This document shows positions 38,129-38,392 of a stretch of DNA of 64,000 nucleotides, one piece after another (within the stretch, counting starts at the first letter, position 1; the number at the start of each line of letters is the position of its first letter). The DNA comes from Simmondsia chinensis. Lineage: Eukaryota > Streptophyta > Magnoliopsida > Caryophyllales > Simmondsiaceae. The stretch lies in contig JAGTTD010000010.1 of NCBI GenBank assembly GCA_018398585.1, positions 947,501 through 1,011,500 on the forward strand, given 5' to 3'. The translations under genes were made by a program, and so were the position numbers. Under the pieces are notes generated by a model. It was not told the DNA's origin. It was given only the letters and a program-made list of their open reading frames with translations, and did not search any database.

Positions 38129-38392
38129 AAGGGTTTATTTATTAGGGATTAAGGCACTGGATTCCATTAGAATTCTGAAGTTAAGTGTGCTTGGGCAAGA
38201 GTAGTACCAGGATGGGTTATCTCCTGGGAAGTCCTCGTATTGCTAACCCTATAAGGTTAGGGGTCCTCAGAAATAGTCTCTCGGCAGGGTTACGTCCTGA
38301 AGGGGTAAGACTGCGTACATCCACCCCTCCCAGACCCCGCTTATGCGGGAGCCCTTGAGGCACTGGGTCTGTTGTTGTTGTTGTTGTTGTTG
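38129..38392 (+). mobile_element. 5S rRNA-derived SINE, best full-length copy
   Basis: CACTGGATTCCATTAGAATT, CTGAAGTTAAGTGTGCTTGG, GCAAGAGTAGTACCAGGATG, 'gggttatctcctgggaagtc' and CTCGTATTGC match plant 5S rRNA from about position 26 to its 3' end. Then AGGTTAGGGGTCCTCAG starts the LINE-type tail, ending CACTGGGTCTG(TTG)8. Flanks 'tatgacttctttttat' (38112-38127) and 'tatgacttgtttttac' (38393-38408). No body separates head and tail. Confidence 0.93.

What the first reader, a model, noticed from the sequence alone, without database searches (positions are those of the whole stretch)
38129..38392. A SINE family built from plant 5S rRNA joined directly to a LINE 3' tail
Seven insertions (7230, 15008, 33063, 38129, 41590, 61820, 63722) begin with recognisable 5S rRNA sequence, including the internal promoter blocks (AAGYGTGCTTGGGC, GATGGGTGACC, GGGAAGTCCT). 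They then pass with no separate body into a roughly 130-bp tail and (TTG)n, and most have target duplications. Nearly all plant SINEs I know are tRNA-headed; 5S-headed SINEs are best known from animals (SINE3 type). Head, tail and duplications are seen in sequence; transcription by Pol III from the 5S promoter is inference.
Basis: partly seen in the sequence, partly recalled or inferred. Interest (0 to 1): 0.82.

Follow-up and report, generated by a model that had tools for sequence, protein, structure and literature searches.

The report
Plant SINE with 5S rRNA head
This plant genome carries many copies of a short jumping element whose front half is a whole 5S ribosomal RNA and whose back half is the tail of a longer jumping element, a combination described in animals but not found for plants in the open papers searched here.

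Summary
Seven insertions in the window, and thousands of first-look candidates in the 831-Mb host genome, join a full-length 5S rRNA directly to a ~125-nt tail. Target duplications flank the joined unit in 6 of 7 window copies. The tail is the 3' end of an RTE-type LINE, one copy of which lies in this window (58131-54637, minus strand). In 200 kb sampled from 18 of 35 contigs, 3 of 3 5S hits carry the tail; flanks show no shared LTR.

Corrections: there are two subfamilies. A ends in (TTG)n. B ends in a T-run, differs in the first 25 nt and is a few nt shorter at the 5S 3' end. A and B consensus heads are identical over nt 26-105, which hold the internal promoter boxes; their 18 differences within nt 1-105 all lie in nt 2-25. 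A's altered terminal stem still pairs. Insertion sites resemble the T-stretch signature reported for plant RTE elements.

Best reading: a SINE3-type plant SINE moved by an RTE LINE, probably born by template switching from LINE tail to 5S rRNA. Pol III transcription is inferred. New variant of a known kind.

The parts
38129..38392 (+). Full-length subfamily A SINE; 5S head about 38130-38250, tail 38254-38392 ending in (TTG)n; target duplications 38112-38128 and 38393-38409
   Evidence: Rfam 5S 38134-38248, 47.8 bits; duplication p 0.003; 8.9% from the 30-copy consensus
63722..63972 (-). Full-length subfamily A SINE, old copy
   Evidence: Rfam 5S 63853-63974, 48.2 bits; duplication p<0.01; 15.9% from consensus
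15005..15236 (-). Subfamily B SINE; 5S head starts at 15236; T-rich 3' end
   Evidence: Rfam 5S 15119-15236, 54.5 bits; duplication p<0.01; 6.1% from B consensus
61819..61983 (+). B-like SINE copy with an internal deletion; ends read by eye
   Evidence: Head BLAST 61840-61909; duplication p<0.01; sequence
33063..33213 (+). 5'-truncated, internally deleted SINE copy with (TTG)n-like end
   Evidence: BLAST; duplication p<0.01
41547..41644 (+). 5' part of a decayed A-type SINE, split by an insert
   Evidence: BLAST query 2-99; outer duplication not significant, p 0.07
41955..42122 (+). 3' part of the same split SINE, T-run end
   Evidence: BLAST query 83-251; repeat of 17 nt at both sides of the insert
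7232..7424 (+). 5'-truncated SINE copy, B-like tail
   Evidence: BLAST; 11-nt duplication p<0.01, p 0.025; tail groups with B
54637..58131 (-). Frame-broken RTE-type LINE whose 3' end (54772-54637) is the SINE tail
   Evidence: Open pieces; PF03372 E 1.5e-5, PF00078 E 6.8e-18 and 3.2e-9; tail match
18906..19045 (+). Example of the tail without 5S head, with its own target duplication
   Evidence: Duplication p<0.01, element starts at the tail start

Best explanation
It is a SINE of the SINE3 type (5S rRNA head) in a flowering plant. RNA polymerase III would start at 5S nt 1, directed by the internal A box, IE and C box, and read on through the joined LINE tail. The protein of an RTE LINE would recognise the structured tail, nick the target downstream of a T stretch, and copy the RNA in by target-primed reverse transcription. 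The element was probably born when such a reverse transcriptase, having copied a LINE tail, switched template to a 5S rRNA and copied it to its 5' end. Shown in sequence: end-to-end 5S head, LINE-shared tail, target duplications round the joined unit, many dispersed copies, T-rich insertion signature. Inferred: Pol III transcription, use of the RTE enzyme, the template switch.
For: Head: the A consensus aligns without gaps to the host 5S from nt 1, 16 differences in 114; A box and IE are identical to the host. A and B heads are identical over nt 26-105. No TTTT inside the A consensus or the B copy at 15005, whereas the host 5S gene is followed by TTTTT. Tail: 121 of 135 and 108 of 121 matches to the LINE 3' end. 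Unit: duplications at p<0.01 in 6 of 7 window copies and 13 of 20 further A copies; 8 of 12 B copies at p 0.002, 7 of these at the head start within about 5 nt. Signature: in 22 5S-headed copies T at -11 to -9 from the duplication start 43 of 66 against 82 of 264 background cells, first base T in 15 of 22, as described for plant RTE elements (PMC13295347, passages).
Against: No transcript data. The LINE in the window is frame-broken and no intact RTE copy was looked at (that search did not complete). A run of TTT at -13 to -7 is in 12 of 22 copies, but also in 8 of 22 at -20 to -14 and 2 of 22 at -7 to -1. Differences in nt 50-97 against elsewhere, A versus host: 3 of 48 and 13 of 66, Fisher p 0.056. 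The full SINE RNA is not unusually stable, z -0.81. 7 of 20 A copies and 4 of 12 B copies had no duplication at p<0.01 with ~40-bp flanks.
Confidence: 0.88

Rival explanations
1. The copies are pieces of Cassandra-type LTR elements that carry 5S sequence.
For: Cassandra is widespread in plants and carries 5S in its LTRs (PMC10886601 and PMC10853983, passages).
Against: No shared long flank in 16 copies apart from one duplicated segment; target duplications of mostly 14-20 nt sit directly at the 5S start and after the tail; 3 of 3 5S hits in the 200-kb sample end in the LINE tail.
Confidence: 0.02
2. 5S retropseudogenes and tail copies that happen to lie side by side.
For: 19 further BLAST pieces in the window carry the tail without a 5S head.
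Against: The junction is the same in 30 A copies and in 14 aligned B copies, and the duplications enclose both halves. A and most B copies were chosen by similarity to a joined copy, but the 200-kb sample was not.
Confidence: 0.01
3. A and B were born by two separate fusions of 5S rRNA with different RTE tails, not by one fusion followed by change of the ends.
For: A and B tails form separate groups; holding them as one clade costs 7.64 and 6.63 log-likelihood units. First 25 nt, 5S 3' end and 3' terminus differ.
Against: Neither AU test rejects one clade (p 0.063 with four rows left out; p 0.218 with a changed B set). Nt 26-105 are identical in A and B and differ from the host at the same three sites.
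Confidence: 0.4
4. The 5S head is a passenger: copies are read from neighbouring promoters, and 5S merely marks a template switch.
For: No transcription evidence is available; single switches make chimeras that need no promoter (established knowledge of LINE chimeras, recalled).
Against: Nt 26-105 identical in A and B consensus while nt 2-25 hold 18 differences; many copies share one start at 5S nt 1; boxes intact.
Confidence: 0.1

Closest known systems
SINE3 (5S-headed SINEs of vertebrates and insects)
   Same: 5S-derived head with A, IE and C boxes, LINE-related tail, target duplications. HaSE3 of a moth is thought to use an RTE LINE (PMC7245038, passages); Ped-1 of springhare pairs a 5S head with the RTE-clade BovB (PMC3747384, passages).
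   Different: Host is a flowering plant; no separate body between head and tail; head is end to end 5S.
Plant tRNA-headed SINEs with RTE tails, such as TS SINE of tobacco
   Same: 3' end shared with an RTE LINE and ending in TTG repeats (PMC3747384, passages).
   Different: Head is 5S rRNA, not tRNA; ARAGORN found one tRNA in the window and it is not in any copy.
Angio-SINE superfamily, including Au SINE
   Same: By recall the tail resembles the conserved 3' part of these SINEs.
   Different: Not compared: the defining paper is not held (one search lists only papers citing it).
Cassandra TRIM elements
   Same: Plant mobile element with a 5S promoter region (PMC10853983, passages).
   Different: Cassandra is an LTR element; here there are no LTRs, but a LINE tail and long target duplications.

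Membership tests
SINE3 | Head derived from 5S rRNA with A box, IE and C box | tested here: met
   Ungapped to host 5S from nt 1; boxes kept. The box strings used were typed from recall.
SINE3 | 3' part shared with a LINE | tested here: met
SINE3 | Many dispersed copies with target duplications round the whole unit | tested here: met
SINE3 | Transcribed by Pol III | not testable with these tools
   No RNA data at hand
RTE-mobilised SINE | T stretch about 10 nt upstream of a duplication that starts with T | tested here: met
   the TTT-run count is mixed, and exact positions were chosen after seeing one search's table, though the paper says about ten
RTE-mobilised SINE | Partner LINE belongs to the RTE clade | tested here: inconclusive
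   Endonuclease and RT found, match to a recalled plant RTE probe, TTG repeats; no LINE tree was built
Cassandra | 5S sequence inside long terminal repeats | tested here: not met
tRNA-headed SINE (SINE2) | tRNA-derived head | tested here: not met
   ARAGORN, one tRNA at 44396-44468 only; Rfam calls the heads 5S
Angio-SINE superfamily | 37-bp 3' Angio-domain | not tested

The most novel reading that the evidence does not exclude
The head may be more than a promoter. Nt 26-105 are identical in the A and B consensus, and A rebuilt its terminal stem with pairing changes, so the RNA may be kept 5S-like to be bound by 5S-handling proteins (TFIIIA, RPL5) and carried to ribosomes, where new RTE protein appears, much as Alu is thought to use SRP9/14. 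The first 25 nt would be an exchangeable end that founds new subfamilies.
Probability: 0.2. Interest if true: 0.8.

Novelty: new variant of a known kind. Interest (0 to 1): 0.64.

Why it matters
A review seen here says plant SINEs derive from tRNAs (PMC9033089, passages), and other papers place 5S-headed SINEs in vertebrates and insects (PMC7245038, passages) and a fungus (PMC5063351, listing). A plant family with a full 5S head, its partner kind of LINE in the same window and the host 5S genes in the same assembly makes it testable whether such SINEs arise by template switching from LINE tail to 5S rRNA, and whether plant RTE enzymes read a 3' RNA structure. Both heads share states at nt 79, 81 and 95 that differ from the host 5S; by recall these are the usual plant states, so the heads may record an older 5S gene.

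Tried and rejected
Cassandra origin and chance side-by-side insertion were tested and dropped. One or two births of A and B: undecided. Stability of the whole RNA: not unusual. In the whole SINE the 5S 3' strand is predicted to pair with the tail rather than with the head's 5' strand. Idea that tail-only insertions start mostly at the head-tail junction, as template switching would suggest: weak; of 19 tail-only copies with a complete tail start 11 had a duplication at p<=0.01, starting 0, 3, 3, 10, 20, 36, 61, 79, 85, 124 and 141 nt upstream, the 85 being a local tandem repeat. PDB sequence search of the LINE RT piece: no hit. Dating: the least diverged fetched copies are 2.4% (A) and 0.9% (B) from consensus; no rate for this host, so no date. 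Host: best hits of a coatomer gene are an unnamed 89% protein, Ancistrocladus 88%, Populus, Carnegiea and Actinidia 87%; Caryophyllales is a guess.

Rows dropped or shaped before a count: 33063 was given with a wrong start (33083) and so failed the abutting test; the 7 tail-only copies there were picked from 12 after one search had shown their duplications; 63722 was left out for lack of upstream sequence. In one search one flank of 32 was too short. In one search four rows were left out; those four and two B rows were left out and six B rows (B consensus and five copies) added. One search printed host stem pairs in a wrong register; the right register is in its own fold line.

Full report
Observation. 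Rfam scores 5S rRNA above its cut-off at 3 of the 7. Duplications at p<0.01 surround 6 of 7. The 41590 copy is one element split at 41645-41954 by another insertion.

Copies in the genome. The window lies in an unnamed 831-Mb genome of 35 contigs. Searches with an A and a B copy gave 7,876 and 9,575 first-look candidates, of which about 40 each were scored; candidate sets are loose and may overlap. In 20 arbitrarily placed 10-kb stretches on 18 contigs BLAST finds 3 heads, each with tail, among 21 tail pieces, and Rfam finds 3 5S hits, the same three (the other 7 hits are in 7 loci fetched as copies). This scales to about 12,500 copies, 95% limits 2,600-36,400.

Head. Host 5S genes stand in tandem on contig C8, 119 nt followed by TTTTT. 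The A consensus, from 30 copies of which 27 were found by similarity to 38129, aligns without gaps from 5S nt 1 with 16 differences in 114. B, from 14 copies of which 12 were found by similarity to 15005, also starts at nt 1. Over nt 1-105 A and B differ at 18 sites, all in nt 2-25; over nt 26-105 they are identical and both differ from the host at 79, 81 and 95. A box and IE equal the host in A and B; the C box equals the recalled plant string in A, with 2 mismatches in the host. The first 6 nt of A (AGGGTT) pair with AACCCT at its 5S end though 4 of the 6 differ from the host; 167 of 174 such cells pair in 30 copies, which are related, and a random 6-mer would pair in that register with chance 0.0005. 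The A head alone folds with a closed terminal stem; the B head alone folds with a shorter stem. With the tail attached, A's 5S 3' strand prefers the tail.

Tail. It matches the 3' end of a LINE at 58131-54637 (minus), 121 of 135 for A and 108 of 121 for B. The LINE has endonuclease (PF03372) and reverse transcriptase (PF00078) pieces in broken frames. Its RTE label rests on a recalled probe, the TTG end and the insertion signature. A ends in (TTG)n, B in TATGTTCCTT and a T-run; the split copy at 41955-42122 has an A-like tail but a T-run.

Insertion. 13 of 20 further A copies have duplications at p<0.01 with 40-bp flanks; 8 of 12 B copies have p 0.002, one of these about 10 nt from the head. 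In 39 insertions (32 with 5S head, 7 tail-only picked beforehand) 30 had duplications at p<0.02 abutting the 5' end. In the 22 5S-headed ones with enough upstream sequence T at -11 to -9 is 43 of 66 against 82 of 264 (Fisher p 8e-7), and 15 duplications start with T. Runs of TTT are 12 of 22 at -13 to -7, 8 of 22 at -20 to -14, 2 of 22 at -7 to -1, so the run itself is less clear than the base frequency. The pattern is that reported for legume RTE LINEs and SINEs (PMC13295347, passages).

In print. Ten searches of the open library were used, all answered; none listed a 5S-headed plant SINE in titles, abstract starts or the passages read. Passages: plant SINEs derive from tRNAs (PMC9033089); 5S promoters known for SINEs in animals (PMC10853983); SINE3 in vertebrates and insects (PMC7245038). 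Two passages cut the other way: PMC3095306 says 5S-like sequences occur among SINE3 elements including plants, citing the Cassandra paper, and PMC4524691 reports that some unknown potato repeat families matched Rfam RNAs including 5S rRNA, which could be a sighting of such an element. Subscription journals, Repbase and SINEBase were not searched, so priority is unproven.

Verdict. A SINE with a full 5S head and an RTE-type tail is well supported; Pol III transcription, the template-switch birth and one or two origins are not settled.

Noticed in passing
41645-41954: A ~310-bp insert lies inside the 5S part of a SINE copy, bounded by a near-repeat of 17 nt and ending in an A-rich stretch; it may be a retroposed piece.
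   Followed up: partly
28855-28983, 44674-44802, 47976-48104: Three tail-only copies share an 8-nt gap in the tail and group together; two of them share about 39 nt upstream. They may be another LINE or SINE subfamily.
   Followed up: partly
44396-44468 (minus): A tRNA-Pro gene with anticodon cgg.
   Followed up: no
412-4967 (minus): Exons of a coatomer alpha subunit gene; its best named relatives are plants.
   Followed up: partly
L006 and L008, contig C17 about 16.36-16.37 Mb: Two A copies sit in flanks that match over 500 bp at 97% and 92%, so one insertion seems to have been copied with its surroundings.
   Followed up: partly
G000 contig C8 about 4.69 and 6.41 Mb: Host 5S genes form two tandem arrays on opposite strands with units of about 435 and 421 bp.
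   Followed up: no
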